Source of the DNA: Stratiformator vulcanicus
GTDB lineage: Bacteria > Planctomycetota > Planctomycetia > Planctomycetales > Planctomycetaceae
Reading direction: 5' to 3'
Assembly (NCBI RefSeq): GCF_007744515.1
Contig: NZ_CP036268.1
Coordinates: forward strand, 4,893,113-4,957,112
Length of the DNA stretch: 64,000 nt
Part shown: positions 33,778 to 45,078 of the stretch, piece after piece
Numbering within the stretch: the first letter of the stretch is position 1
Layout: every line of letters starts with the position of its first letter
Notes under the pieces: model-generated
Seen by the model: the letters and a program-made list of their open reading frames with translations, nothing else
Database searches by the model: none
Told to the model about the DNA's origin: nothing
Program-made: the position numbers and the translations under genes

Positions 33778-34305
33778 TTACTCGTCGTCAATCAAGCGAA
33801 TCGTTGCTTCGTCGACCACTCGATAGCGACCGTTCAAATCGAAACGTCGTGGCAGAACGTTGAGGCGGAAGGCTCGCTGCAATTGATCGAGTTCGTATTG
33901 CTCGATTTTCCCACCTTTTCCGAGTACCAGAAAGCTATGAGGCGACTGGCACGCGACGAGAGTATAGCAATCGCCACGCTGCCTTATTCGCTGATCGGCA
34001 TCGAGAAGGATGCCAAACGACACCCGGCTGGCGCGATATGCTGCGATGTCGATGGCCGAATCTGTCACCCTCACGGGGAAAACGTGAAAGCTATCAACAT
34101 CACGTCGTATCGTTTCAATATCCAGCAACCCCCGCACGGTCTCAAAAGATAGATTCGTCTTAACAATCGCCATCGCGACTCGCGGCGATGAGGCATGCAT
34201 CTCCCAAGCCAACCACGGATCGAGCAGGCCGAACTGGTGCAGTACCGGCAGCAGGACTATTAGAACGGACACCACGGAAGCGAAACGATCACCGATTGAA
34301 CTCAT
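33778..34305 (-). CDS. Array paralog P18 (bitopic DPWPAW-family protein)
   Basis: 175 residues; the last gene of the array. A short polar start (SSIGDRFAS) leads to one helix at about residues 9-25 and the family motif LPVLHQFGLLDPWLAW, with EMHAS in place of AVYxx. The domain after it has AAYRASRVSFGILLDADQR, where the usual LGVPxYPxxRxxxG has lost the LGV part, and ends near LNVLPRRFDLNGRYRV. The predicted topology is N-in with the C-terminal 145 residues outside the cytoplasm. The ATG overlaps the stop of P17 (ATGA). No enzymatic motif is seen. The function is unknown. Confidence 0.85.
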   Translation of the reverse strand: MSSIGDRFASVVSVLIVLLPVLHQFGLLDPWLAWEMHASSPRVAMAIVKTNLSFETVRGLLDIETIRRDVDSFHVFPVRVTDSAIDIAAYRASRVSFGILLDADQRIRQRGDCYTLVACQSPHSFLVLGKGGKIEQYELDQLQRAFRLNVLPRRFDLNGRYRVVDEATIRLIDDE

Positions 34306-34832
34306 TGAACTTGCCTTCGCGGCAATACGTTTAATAATCGCTTCGAGATGTCGGACTTCTTAACTCCGATGGAAAACGCACCGTTGCGAAACTCCAGCGA
34401 CGGGGGATGAACGGCCGCACGTGCGTTGCGGAAAGCATCTTGAAATCCGATGGGAAATATGCCGGGCAGTGCATGATATTGCGGTGATTTTCCGATCATG
34501 AATTGCTGCGAAAAGCCATCGCGCATTGCAATTACCACACAGCAGCCGATAAGCATTCTTCGACTTGGATTGACCGGCGAGCCTAATAGCCTCTCGCTCT
34601 CATCGGTGAGTATGAGGTCATTGGCAAAGGCATAAACAATTCCACCCCTGGCAAAACCTTTTGGCGATTTGCCCCTATCACCGCCTCCGACACGATTCCA
34701 CAAGTCAGTTAATTCAGAAGTATGCGATCTAATTCTTGACGCACGCCGATTGTCAGGGTGATACACTGCCCAAGCCGGCCAAGGATCGAGCAGGTGAATT
34801 TGATAAAGCACCGGCAACGCGATTACAACCAC
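34302..34832 (-). CDS. Array paralog P17, start unclear
   Basis: About 176 residues from a GTG at 34832. The family motif reads LPVLYQIHLLDPWPAWAVYH. The ectodomain has LLGSPVNPSRRMLIG in place of LGVPxYPxxRxxxG and ends LLNVLPRRQVQ. The homologous N-terminus (TVGDRFTSALA) is encoded upstream of the GTG to about 34865, but that stretch has no ATG, GTG or TTG where the other paralogs start. Either a rare start codon is used, or the gene starts inside the helix, or an original ATG was lost. The stop overlaps the P18 start. Confidence 0.75.
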   Translation of the reverse strand: MVVIALPVLYQIHLLDPWPAWAVYHPDNRRASRIRSHTSELTDLWNRVGGGDRGKSPKGFARGGIVYAFANDLILTDESERLLGSPVNPSRRMLIGCCVVIAMRDGFSQQFMIGKSPQYHALPGIFPIGFQDAFRNARAAVHPPSLEFRNGAFSIGVKKSDISKRLLNVLPRRQVQ

Positions 34833-34864
34833 GGCCAGCGCCGACGTGAACCGGTCGCCGACTG

Positions 34865-35521
34865 TTAAAAGCGTTTGAGTTTGGTCTCGAGGTATCGAAA
34901 TAGTTCTACGTCCCTTGGCAGTCCATTAAACCAACCCTGCTCGATGCGATGTGCGACCTGCTGGTAATCGATTGGCGTCGACCACTCGAACCTGTCAACA
35001 CTTGATCGGTCCGGCCGAAATAAGTTCTGGTCTCGCTCAATCCGCAACGCCCCTCGCAACCGGTAGCGTTCGTCATGTCCCGCATGGGCTGCGTAAGAAC
35101 CCTGAACATGCCGGGCCAATGCCAGCATCGCCCCAACAGAGACACGTTGGCTGGAATAACTGTTGACTCCCAGAGTGATTCGTGCCCAACCCGAAATCGA
35201 TTGATACTCGTTATAGCTGTCAGCATGACGCACAAATGGGCTGCGATCAACATCTGAAAAATTCAGCCAACGCCTGGCGAAGCCTTCGGACGCGAAACCC
35301 GTATGCCAGTGCTCTCCGAACACCCTACGCTCCCAATCACACAGATGCCGATCCGGAATATTCTCGAGAATTCCGGTGCCCAACCTGATATCGCACTTAC
35401 TCTCGCGCACACGATACACCTCCCAAGCCAACCACGGATCGAGCAGGTCACATTGATGCAGAACGGGCAGGCCAATGACAACTGCGGCAAGACACGCTGC
35501 GGCACGATCACCCAGCTTCAT
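34865..35521 (-). CDS. Array paralog P16
   Basis: 218 residues. It begins MKLGDRAAA, has a helix at about residues 8-24 and the motif LPVLHQCDLLDPWLAWEVYR. The ectodomain is longer than most and contains WARITLGVNSYSSQRVSVG at the framework position, then WFNGLPRDVELF near the end, so the NxLPR element is kept and followed by about 17 further residues. The ATG overlaps the P15 stop (ATGA). The stretch between the motif and LGV holds two Cys and shows no likeness to its neighbours. Unknown function. Confidence 0.85.
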   Translation of the reverse strand: MKLGDRAAACLAAVVIGLPVLHQCDLLDPWLAWEVYRVRESKCDIRLGTGILENIPDRHLCDWERRVFGEHWHTGFASEGFARRWLNFSDVDRSPFVRHADSYNEYQSISGWARITLGVNSYSSQRVSVGAMLALARHVQGSYAAHAGHDERYRLRGALRIERDQNLFRPDRSSVDRFEWSTPIDYQQVAHRIEQGWFNGLPRDVELFRYLETKLKRF

Positions 35522-43512: not shown

Positions 43513-43687
43513 CGCTCTTTATTCGCAAATAGACACGATGGATGCACCCGATTGGGGGACTTCAGATGAATTCCACATTGGTTGTTTATTGGTATCTTTC
43601 GCTGAATGCTCTTGCGGCTGCGCCGCCCGGACGTTGTCCGGGCCACTCCCGATTTGGTGCGTGAGACCGAGTTTACCTTACTTGGAA
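43513..43687. other. P1-P2 gap with a solo arm of repeat C
   Basis: At about 43609-43656 the sequence GCTCTTGCGGCTGCGCCGCC, followed by CGGACGTTGTCCGGGCCACTC, equals one terminal arm of repeat C with its nested hairpins. No second arm is present. The rest of the gap is without a supported gene; the minus-strand frame at 43434-43847 has no start in keeping with the array and lacks the motif. Confidence 0.6.
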
Positions 43688-44179
43688 TTACCAGCCCTGC
43701 TGCCATTTGTGCCATGCGACAGCGTCCAACTGCAGCTTTTGACTTAGTCGATGCTTGCAGTCGGTTTCGTCGCGTGGGATGTCGACCTCGAACGGGTGCT
43801 CGAACGGCCGGATAAAGAAATGTTTTCCCCTCCTGTTGGCGATACAAATTGAGTCGCCGGAGACCTGTTCGTTGTAAAGCCGCTCCTCGGCCCGGCCGAA
43901 GACGATTGTGACGCCCTCAAGCACATGCAGAGACTGCACGATCGGCGTCCCGGTCACATCTTCGCAAATCTCGTCGAGCGAGAGCTTGCTGTTCGGCATT
44001 GAAAGGTGGTGCGATACGAAAACGGACGGACCGATGACCATTCCCAACCGAGACGACGACAGGTGCGTCCATGCATGCCAACTATCGTCGTGTCCGAGAT
44101 AGAAGGTCGCCGGGGCGGCCGTCACCGCGACCAAAAACACCGTCGCAATACCGGTGCCGAGCGCGGCTGCCCGTATCAC
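43688..44179 (-). CDS. Array paralog P1, first and most divergent
   Basis: 163 residues from GTG at 44179, overlapping the stop of the polytopic head gene (GTGA). A helix at about residues 8-27 leads to APATFYLGHDDSWHAWTHLS, a worn form of the motif that keeps D-x-W-x-A-W. The ectodomain shows no LGVPxYP element, and the end is rich in Lys and Trp (WHKWQQGW). Family membership rests on position, size, topology and the worn motif. Confidence 0.75.
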   Translation of the reverse strand: MIRAAALGTGIATVFLVAVTAAPATFYLGHDDSWHAWTHLSSSRLGMVIGPSVFVSHHLSMPNSKLSLDEICEDVTGTPIVQSLHVLEGVTIVFGRAEERLYNEQVSGDSICIANRRGKHFFIRPFEHPFEVDIPRDETDCKHRLSQKLQLDAVAWHKWQQGW

Positions 44180-45078
44180 GACGCCGGCTCTGTTAAATTC
44201 GGTGGTTCAGCCCCCGACGACTCATTGTCGTCGCCCGGCTCGCCATCGTCCCCCTCAATCTCTGCGAATGCGGAGCCGGTGCGGTCGTAGCGGGCTTGGT
44301 GCTTTTCGCGGAGGCGATTGAGTTCCCATCGCAGCAGCAGCCAGTTCTGCCCGAGGAAGTAGACGTTCCACAGCAATACGCCGCGGGAGTGGTCCAGGCC
44401 CCACGGGCCGAGCGCGAGGAGCAGGATCACGTGCATTGCCAGCGAGGCCCACAAGCCGAGCCGCCGGAACCACGGGAAGACCAATGACAGGCCGATGGCC
44501 ATCTCGTAGCCCGGCAGCAGCAGGGTCGTCCAATTGGCGAATTTCTGATTGAAGGCGCCGTCGAGCCCGACCGCCTTGAGCAGCCCCTCGTTAAAGATGA
44601 GCGGCCCCATTTCCTGCATAAAGGTGTAGTCGAACTTCGAAACGGCGCTCCAGAAATAGATGCTCGCCGTCAGATACAGCACCAGCCTCAACGAGCGAGC
44701 CGGGCGGGCGATCGTGATCAGGACAATCAGGATCGAAAAGTGATAGGCCCAGACCTGCAGCCGGTTCTGGTCGAGCGTGACCATCAGGAGCATTGAGAGA
44801 AATAGCAGCAGGGCTGAGATCGGCGGGAGATACGACCAGTACCGCTGCGTCGCACCGCGCATCTTCGCGACTGATGCGGCGAGGAGCATCCCGTACGCCC
44901 CGTAGATGCCGACGCAGCCGACCCAATCGAGCCACAGCGGCCACGTGCGGGCAAAGCCGAACAGGGGGATTTGCGGAAAGACGTCCTGCGGCGTCCACAA
45001 CTTCCACGTGGCGCCGGTCAGAATTAGACCGAACAGCGCGAGCCAGAACCGCAGGCGGTAGATGAGGCGATCGTCCAT
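44176..45078 (-). CDS. Head gene of the array: polytopic HTTM/DoxX-like membrane protein
   Basis: 300 residues from ATG at 45078; GTG at 45096 would add six. About eight helices fill residues 10-265. GLILTGATWKLWTP, WAYHFSILIVLIT, IYFWSAVSKFDYTFMQEMGP and HVILLLALGPWGLDHSRG resemble the HTTM/DoxX-like group of integral proteins (vitamin-K-carboxylase-like membrane cores and MauE-type proteins), though I cannot fix which. The tail (about 265-300) is acidic and disordered. It lies first in the operon and its stop overlaps P1, so the eighteen anchored proteins are made along with it. It could be a membrane enzyme or scaffold that they serve. Confidence 0.72.
   Translation of the reverse strand: MDDRLIYRLRFWLALFGLILTGATWKLWTPQDVFPQIPLFGFARTWPLWLDWVGCVGIYGAYGMLLAASVAKMRGATQRYWSYLPPISALLLFLSMLLMVTLDQNRLQVWAYHFSILIVLITIARPARSLRLVLYLTASIYFWSAVSKFDYTFMQEMGPLIFNEGLLKAVGLDGAFNQKFANWTTLLLPGYEMAIGLSLVFPWFRRLGLWASLAMHVILLLALGPWGLDHSRGVLLWNVYFLGQNWLLLRWELNRLREKHQARYDRTGSAFAEIEGDDGEPGDDNESSGAEPPNLTEPAS

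What the first reader, a model, noticed from the sequence alone, without database searches (positions are those of the whole stretch)
33778..45078. Operon of eighteen tandem paralogs of an undescribed single-helix protein family
Seen: eighteen consecutive minus-strand genes encode proteins of about 160-240 residues. Most share an N-terminal helix running into a motif near LPVLYQFGLLDPWPAWAVY, a mid-domain WxxxxLGVPxYPxxRxxxG and an end near LNxxPRxxQVLxW. Gaps are few (P1-P2, P6-P7 and a short one at P16-P17); the other junctions overlap by 4-73 bases, often ATGA or GTGA. Known: such overlaps usually mean translational coupling and a shared complex or process. Inference: this is one transcript making a set of membrane-anchored extracytoplasmic proteins that are variants of one fold. 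I recall no described system of this form.
Basis: partly seen in the sequence, partly recalled or inferred. Interest (0 to 1): 0.95.

Follow-up and report, generated by a model that had tools for sequence, protein, structure and literature searches.

The report
Split membrane enzyme with eighteen heads
One bacterium, a planctomycete by its relatives, has cut in two a gene that its relatives keep whole and copied the outer half eighteen times, so that one membrane core, folded like human vitamin K-dependent carboxylase, may be served by eighteen exchangeable outer parts.

Summary
In detail: eighteen consecutive minus-strand genes (P1-P18, window 33778-44179) encode 162-244 aa proteins with one N-terminal helix, a shared LPVLYQFGLLDPWPAWAVY-type anchor and a divergent outer domain. 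The gene in front (H, 44176-45078) is a MauE-family membrane protein. In relatives, H and P are two ends of one ~430 aa protein: 28 of 29 loci and 80 of 80 named loci. No other genome searched showed more than one match. In four of the 80 named loci the whole gene lies between the same two neighbours as the array. The window therefore shows in-place gene fission followed by 18-fold tandem amplification of the C-terminal half.

A relative's AlphaFold model (pLDDT 94) matches human GGCX, the vitamin K-dependent gamma-carboxylase, over almost its whole length (Z 19.3, 359 residues), and the active-base lysine aligns. H would correspond to GGCX TM1-8; each P to TM9, linker and the start of the propeptide-binding domain.

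My preferred mechanism, inferred only, is one H core completed by eighteen exchangeable substrate-recognition subunits. GGCX's Glu-binding histidine is replaced and no VKOR was found, so Glu carboxylation is not claimed.

The parts
44176..45078 (-). H: MauE-family membrane core, 300 aa; counterpart of the N-terminal part (TM1-8 by my helix count) of the fused relatives. Carries K148, the counterpart of the active-base lysine. Its acidic tail (about aa 250-300) stands where the loop before the last helix was cut.
   Evidence: Pfam MauE 3.9e-7; blastp to the N-terminus of 28 of 29 fused relatives; keeps 15 of 15 invariant core residues
43688..44179 (-). P1, 163 aa; GTG start overlaps the stop of H by 4 nt; weakest match to the profile of the 18
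42895..43512 (-). P2, 205 aa; holds an internal 36-nt tandem duplication
42248..42907 (-). P3, 219 aa
41761..42261 (-). P4, 166 aa; sister of P5
41276..41764 (-). P5, 162 aa; best P match to the fused relative in 17 of 29 loci
40719..41285 (-). P6, 188 aa
40096..40644 (-). P7, 182 aa
39533..40102 (-). P8, 189 aa
38814..39548 (-). P9, 244 aa (TTG start)
38287..38814 (-). P10, 175 aa (ATG 38814; GTG 38817 also possible)
37715..38290 (-). P11, 191 aa (GTG start)
37170..37718 (-). P12, 182 aa; the one copy whose structure was predicted
36593..37195 (-). P13, 200 aa
36054..36665 (-). P14, 203 aa; overlaps P13 by 73 nt
35518..36057 (-). P15, 179 aa
34865..35521 (-). P16, 218 aa
34302..34832 (-). P17, 176 aa from GTG 34832; true start unclear (frame open to 34925)
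33778..34305 (-). P18, 175 aa, last copy
45137..46402 (-). upstream flank: zinc-ribbon-like protein, 421 aa (Pfam zinc-ribbon matches all below their cut-offs); a homologue (52-57% identical) lies upstream of the fused gene in 7 of 80 named loci
32411..33643 (-). downstream flank: class I/II aminotransferase, probably LL-diaminopimelate aminotransferase (name recalled); a homologue (71-74% identical) lies downstream of the fused gene in 8 of 80 named loci

Best explanation
Shown: H and P1-P18 descend from one ancestral gene for a membrane protein of GGCX-like fold with an outer domain. In this lineage the gene was cut in the loop before its last helix (TM9 by my count), and the C-terminal part (TM9 + linker + outer domain) was then amplified in tandem to 18 copies, in place. 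Inferred: H is still the catalytic core. It cannot close its active site without a ninth helix, so each P docks on H through its anchor helix and linker, and its divergent outer domain recruits a different partner or substrate. The cell would thus make up to 18 alternative H-P enzymes from one core, as group II ECF transporters share one energising module among many S components (recalled analogy). The anchor is held alike by docking on the same H (and by sequence exchange between copies), while the outer domains are free to diverge. The reaction is unknown; a hydroquinone-driven, base-catalysed modification of secreted or membrane proteins is the leading guess, from the conserved lysine.
For: Fused homologue in one frame: 28 of 29 loci and 80 of 80 named loci. 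Matches to the P domain: 36 of 59 genomes, 141 of 170 of the order, 186 of 397 of the class, the own genome counted in each; every other matching genome has one match. Same neighbours on both sides in L063, L069, L070 and L128, 4 of 80. The 18 form one side of a branch, SH-aLRT 98. The fused model matches GGCX 58-496 over model residues 8-412, Z 19.3, rmsd 5.3, 359 aligned, next non-GGCX row Z 7.9; the 15 Foldseek hits at E <= 0.001 are all GGCX. hhalign to 14 VKGC proteins: probability 97.5, E 7e-12, aligning K145 with the VKGC lysine, which aligns with the second lysine of GVKKLDADW in GGCX. H keeps 15 of 15 invariant core residues. Of residues invariant or nearly so in fused proteins, Ps keep P 18/18, D 17/18, W 18/18 and N 17/18. 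In GGCX, Y379 of TM9 holds K217, linker M401 lines the vitamin K pocket, Y395 coordinates Glu, and the PBD is the substrate exosite (PMC12589487; parts 1 and 2 of 3 read). Anchor identity among P4-P18 is 0.52 against 0.38 among 57 fused proteins; outer-domain identity is 0.18 against 0.32. Same-residue codons are identical more often than shuffled in the anchor (0.465 against 0.331, sd 0.014) but not in the outer domain (0.303 against 0.307, sd 0.011).
Against: No direct evidence that any P binds H. The GGCX Glu-binding N159/H160 correspond to P106/W107 (V109/W110 in H), so the chemistry may differ. No VKOR in the own genome at E <= 0.01. Profile A3 finds no PDB chain by sequence at E <= 10, and the P profile does not align with VKGC proteins. 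The P12 model is only moderate (pLDDT 75.5, pTM 0.66), its last third is poor, and it alone matches no solved structure well. Several residues near-invariant in fused proteins are kept by only part of the Ps: W 15, R 14, P 10, Y 9 and P 8 of 18, and R, G, R of the R..TG.R motif in 5, 6 and 9 of 18. The fused gene itself is absent at this threshold from 29 of 170 genomes of the order and 211 of 397 of the class. The array is known from one genome.
Confidence: 0.5

Rival explanations
1. After the split the Ps left H and became surface display or receptor proteins whose outer domains diversify under conflict (phage, predators, kin recognition); the anchor is only a membrane anchor.
For: Outer domains are far more divergent than anchors (0.175 against 0.45 over all 18); size varies from 162 to 244 aa.
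Against: The conserved anchor includes linker residues P, D and W (18, 17 and 18 of 18) that are near-invariant in fused proteins, more than an anchor needs. The outer domains keep a G, an R and an N in 15 of 15 of the copies tested (P4-P18). The array follows H directly.
Confidence: 0.2
2. H and most Ps assemble at once into one large complex rather than exchanging on one core.
For: Tight gene packing with 15 of 18 overlapping junctions suggests coupled translation.
Against: Single-copy fused relatives imply 1:1 packing of the last helix on the core; one H has one such slot.
Confidence: 0.12
3. The Ps are mostly decaying duplicates with little or no function; only one partner matters.
For: Mean outer-domain identity is as low as 0.175; the P12 model is weak.
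Against: 18 of 18 frames open over 3,428 codons; the other frames hold 1-13 stops each per gene. An outer-domain G, R and N are the same in 15 of 15 copies while their codons agree no more than codon usage predicts, the mark of purifying selection on protein.
Confidence: 0.1
4. The arrangement is an assembly or gene-calling artefact.
For: Seen in one genome only.
Against: Single-contig genome; copies too different to be assembly repeats; profile E 8.1e-26 or better for all 18; flanking genes have homologues beside the fused gene in relatives.
Confidence: 0.01

Closest known systems
Human GGCX (vitamin K-dependent gamma-glutamyl carboxylase) and bacterial VKGC/HTTM proteins
   Same: Fold of the fused relative over nearly its whole length (Z 19.3); lysine in the K218 place; multi-helix core, last helix, linker and outer domain in the same order
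   Different: Low sequence identity (11-14% in the GGCX structure alignments); Glu-binding N159/H160 replaced; shorter outer domain; split in two and amplified 18-fold in the window
MauE (PF07291), methylamine utilisation membrane protein
   Same: H scores above the curated cut-off (30.9 against 27 bits); 17 of 18 fused relatives match at E <= 1
   Different: Fused relatives carry a further helix and outer domain; a link to methylamine dehydrogenase was not looked for
Group II ECF transporters (recalled)
   Same: One shared membrane module served by many exchangeable specificity subunits (proposed here by analogy only)
   Different: Unrelated proteins; the exchange in this case is inferred, not shown

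Membership tests
Planctomycete fused MauE-like/GGCX-fold protein family (defined here) | N-terminal core homologous to H and C-terminal helix + outer domain homologous to P | tested here: met
   but split into separate genes in the window
GGCX / vitamin K-dependent gamma-carboxylase | Overall fold | tested here: met
   fused relative L058; not tested on H, and the P12 model alone gave no match
GGCX / vitamin K-dependent gamma-carboxylase | Active-base lysine (K218) | tested here: met
   K148 of H = K145 of L058, 65 of 65 rows; aligned with the VKGC lysine and through it with GGCX
GGCX / vitamin K-dependent gamma-carboxylase | Glu-coordinating N159/H160 | tested here: not met
   hhalign places P106/W107 opposite the N-H pair of VKGC; V109/W110 in H
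GGCX / vitamin K-dependent gamma-carboxylase | Gamma-carboxylation of Glu | not testable with these tools
   needs an assay
HTTM (PF05090) | Pfam score over the cut-off | tested here: not met
   2 of 18 fused proteins match, best E 0.02; no match at E <= 1 for H
MauE (PF07291) | Pfam score over the cut-off | tested here: met
   H 30.9 bits, cut-off 27
MauE (PF07291) | Role in methylamine dehydrogenase maturation | not tested
   no search for mau genes was made
MauD / thioredoxin-like partner of MauE | Family score and CxxC pair in the P proteins | tested here: not met
   one P at E 0.0053; CxxC in 0 of 18

The most novel reading that the evidence does not exclude
A combinatorial membrane enzyme: one TM1-8 catalytic core of GGCX-like fold takes any of 18 alternative TM9-plus-outer-domain subunits, each completing the active site and bringing its own substrate specificity. 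It arose by splitting a single-chain enzyme before its last helix and amplifying only the recognition half, with anchors kept interchangeable by sequence exchange between copies.
Probability: 0.4. Interest if true: 0.92.

Novelty: new variant of a known kind. Interest (0 to 1): 0.77.

Why it matters
It is a clear natural case of a membrane protein split between core and outer part, with only the outer part multiplied. Single-copy fused relatives in many genomes show the 'before' state, in four of 80 named loci at the same gene position. If the exchange model holds, it gives a ready-made set of 18 interchangeable recognition modules on a GGCX-like core, and a way to find out what the widespread MauE-like GGCX-fold proteins of planctomycetes, for which my paper searches showed no study, act on.

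Tried and rejected
MauD/thioredoxin idea: the order of strands and helices in the fused outer domain suggested a thioredoxin-like fold and NCBIfam gave MauD at E 0.0053 for one P. I dropped it: no CxxC in any P or in H, and the fold search gave GGCX.

Searching P12's model alone gave no useful PDB match. This tests little, as the model is only moderate. A4 against VKGC by hhalign gave nothing, so the P-to-GGCX link rests on the fused relatives and their structure, not on P sequence alone. A3 against PDB sequences gave no hit at E <= 10. The count of nine membrane helices is my reading of the helix list beside GGCX's nine in PMC12589487; no topology program was run.

Short C-terminal frames in other genomes looked like possible independent splits. 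G312 and G424 match at contig starts and were not fetched.

Limits of the copy counts: only the best 21 or 9 candidates per genome were scored, at E <= 0.001. This is why the own genome shows 9, and why 'more than one' is tested only up to these numbers. The 80 named loci are the best 80 of 164 confirmed, were picked by fused-protein motifs, and hold 3-21 kb each, so they cannot reveal a genome that has only split genes. 29 of the 35 other matching genomes were examined.

Shared neighbours: the upstream gene has a homologue in 7 and the downstream gene in 8 of the 80 named loci, both in 4; many loci are too short to show them, and in others the gene has other neighbours. L069 has one further gene between.

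The tree is a quick tree on 165 columns with 57 of the 80 fused proteins and long P branches; long-branch attraction could pull the Ps together. The shared anchor and its codon similarity speak independently for one origin. Codon tests used 15 of 18 copies (P4-P18), P1-P3 being left out as too divergent. dN/dS by region was tried, but outer-domain synonymous sites are saturated and the alignment there is unsure, so no selection value is claimed. Low outer-domain identity may in part reflect misalignment. Promoter and terminator scans gave 12 promoter-like sites against 6.4 expected (4 of them on the minus strand) and 14 terminator-like sites against 14.4 expected, which decides nothing about one transcript.

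Literature: the listings (4 of 4; 12 of 814; 5 of 5; 10 of 29; 10 of 349) show no title or abstract start that describes such an array, an amplified HTTM or MauE protein in planctomycetes, or a split GGCX. Only PMC12589487 was opened (parts 1 and 2 of 3). Subscription papers are mostly not held.

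Full report
What is there. On the minus strand of the window, 45078 to 33778, stand one 300 aa membrane protein gene (H) and eighteen small genes (P1-P18). Each P has one hydrophobic helix, a shared anchor around LPVLYQFGLLDPWPAWAVY, and an outer domain in which most copies show LGVP.Y...R...G and LN..PR motifs. A profile of the 18 finds these 18 and nothing else convincing in the 5.23 Mb genome. Of the 18 junctions from H to P18, three have gaps and fifteen overlap, seven of them by 4 nt. 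No P matches a Pfam family at E <= 1; the only NCBIfam matches at E <= 1 were one MauD at 0.0053 and one unrelated family at 0.12. H is MauE family, 3.9e-7.

Where it comes from. Of 59 genomes (the own and 58 relatives), 36 match the P profile; the 35 others match once each, 34 of them in open frames of 406-604 aa and one in a frame cut by a contig end. In 28 of the 29 loci examined the same frame carries an H-like N-terminus and a P-like C-terminus; the 29th is the cut one. Of 164 relatives found in named records, the best 80 all carry exactly one such fused gene in the DNA held; nearly all titles name planctomycetes, a few say only 'bacterium' and one says Gammaproteobacteria. In the order 141 of 170 genomes match and in the class 186 of 397, own genome included, and no genome other than the window's shows more than one match, within the candidate limits of those searches. 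hhalign joins the P profile to the C-terminal part of the fused profile (probability 99.6, E 4.5e-24). In four named loci (L063, L069, L070, L128; 4 of 80) the fused gene lies between homologues of the two genes that flank the array, with one extra gene in L069. The 18 Ps fall on one side of a branch with support 98, and neighbours in the array (P1-P3, support 94; P4-P5, 96) group in the tree. I conclude that the fused gene was split in the loop before its last helix and the C-terminal part amplified in place, in this lineage. I regard this part as shown.

What the ancestor is. AlphaFold with 65 sequences gave a model of the relative L058 (titled uncultured Schlesneria sp.) with pLDDT 94.1 and pTM 0.92. 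Against PDB, the 15 Foldseek matches at E <= 0.001 are all human GGCX. VIA-align 2 aligns model 8-412 with GGCX 58-496, Z 19.3, rmsd 5.3, 359 residues; the first non-GGCX row has Z 7.9. As residues 8-289 (core and last helix) number 282, at least 77 of the aligned residues must lie in the outer domain (my arithmetic). By sequence, the fused profile aligns with 14 VKGC proteins of planctomycetes, among them the true GGCX homologue of the own genome (phmmer to GGCX 5e-26), at probability 97.5 and E 7e-12, over the core only; the invariant lysine in SA.SK.D meets the invariant VKGC lysine, which in the phmmer alignment meets the second lysine of GVKKLDADW, by its number K218. PMC12589487 (parts 1-2 of 3 read) gives K218 as the active base, N159/H160/Y395 as Glu-coordinating, Y379 of TM9 and S398 of the TMD-PBD linker as partners of K217, linker M401 in the vitamin K pocket, and the PBD as the exosite for the substrate's propeptide. 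H keeps 15 of 15 invariant core residues, the lysine included (K148). But the N159/H160 place is P106/W107 in L058 and V109/W110 in H, and the genome has no VKOR at E <= 0.01. I therefore claim the fold and a likely shared base, not Glu carboxylation.

How the copies evolved. Among P4-P18 the anchor is 52% identical and the outer domain 18%; in 57 fused proteins of many genera the figures are 38% and 32%. So the copies are closer to one another than those proteins are in the anchor, and further apart in the outer domain. Same-residue codons agree above shuffled codons in the anchor (0.465 against 0.331, sd 0.014, 300 shuffles) but not in the outer domain (0.303 against 0.307, sd 0.011) (P4-P18). 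The anchor has thus kept, or regained, nucleotide likeness that the rest has lost. Sequence exchange between copies through the anchor is the simplest reading; a constraint on the nucleic acid itself is not excluded. In the outer domain one G, one R and one N column are the same in 15 of 15 copies although their codons agree no more than codon usage predicts (0.23, 0.15 and 0.52 against 0.27, 0.19 and 0.51), and all 18 frames are open. That is purifying selection on protein, so the copies are not plain debris. Other residues of the fused family are kept by only part of the copies.

How it may work (inferred). H alone lacks the helix and linker that in GGCX close the active site. Each P has just these, plus an outer domain. 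I think each P pairs with H and lends it a partner specificity. It is also possible that the Ps left H and became surface proteins, that they form one large complex, or that few matter; these are set out as rivals. The P12 model supports the fold only in part (pLDDT 75.5; first two thirds alike in order of elements, last third poor).

Novelty. The capped listings show no such system in the held papers. The protein kind is known by fold (GGCX) and by Pfam (MauE); the split with 18 copies of one half is, as far as I can tell, new. I file it as a new variant of a known kind, and leave the combinatorial enzyme as the bold reading.

Noticed in passing
own genome C1:4890013-4891845, about 1.3 kb left of the window start (L139): A true GGCX/VKGC homologue, 611 aa (phmmer to human GGCX 5e-26), lies about 35 kb from the near end of the array; a second HTTM protein is at 3330722-3331501 (L138). 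No VKOR was found in the genome at E <= 0.01.
   Followed up: partly
window 43252-43323: P2 holds a 36-nt in-frame tandem duplication (copies 89% alike), a sign of recent length change in the outer domain.
   Followed up: no
window 34832-34925: P17 has no usual start codon that would include its whole anchor helix; its frame is open back into P16.
   Followed up: partly
window 48386-49252: 288 aa protein made of repeats near GYRLVDLCSYAVNRQDYYAAIWE.
   Followed up: no
window 30645-32111, 49347-50696, 55842-57677: Three sulfatases (Pfam Sulfatase, E 1.3e-51 or better) in one window.
   Followed up: no
L129 2663-3805: One fused relative carries a further C-terminal extension with hydrophobic stretches, about 180 aa more than its relatives.
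   Followed up: no
L118 (DUBL01000169.1): Record titled Gammaproteobacteria carries a fused gene very like those of loci L108 and L124, titled Planctomycetaceae; perhaps a mislabelled MAG contig.
   Followed up: no
L063, L070, L101: Upstream of the zinc-ribbon gene lies a gene with MGLFDKLR.E (SPFH-like by recall), so the fused gene may belong to a longer conserved neighbourhood.
   Followed up: no
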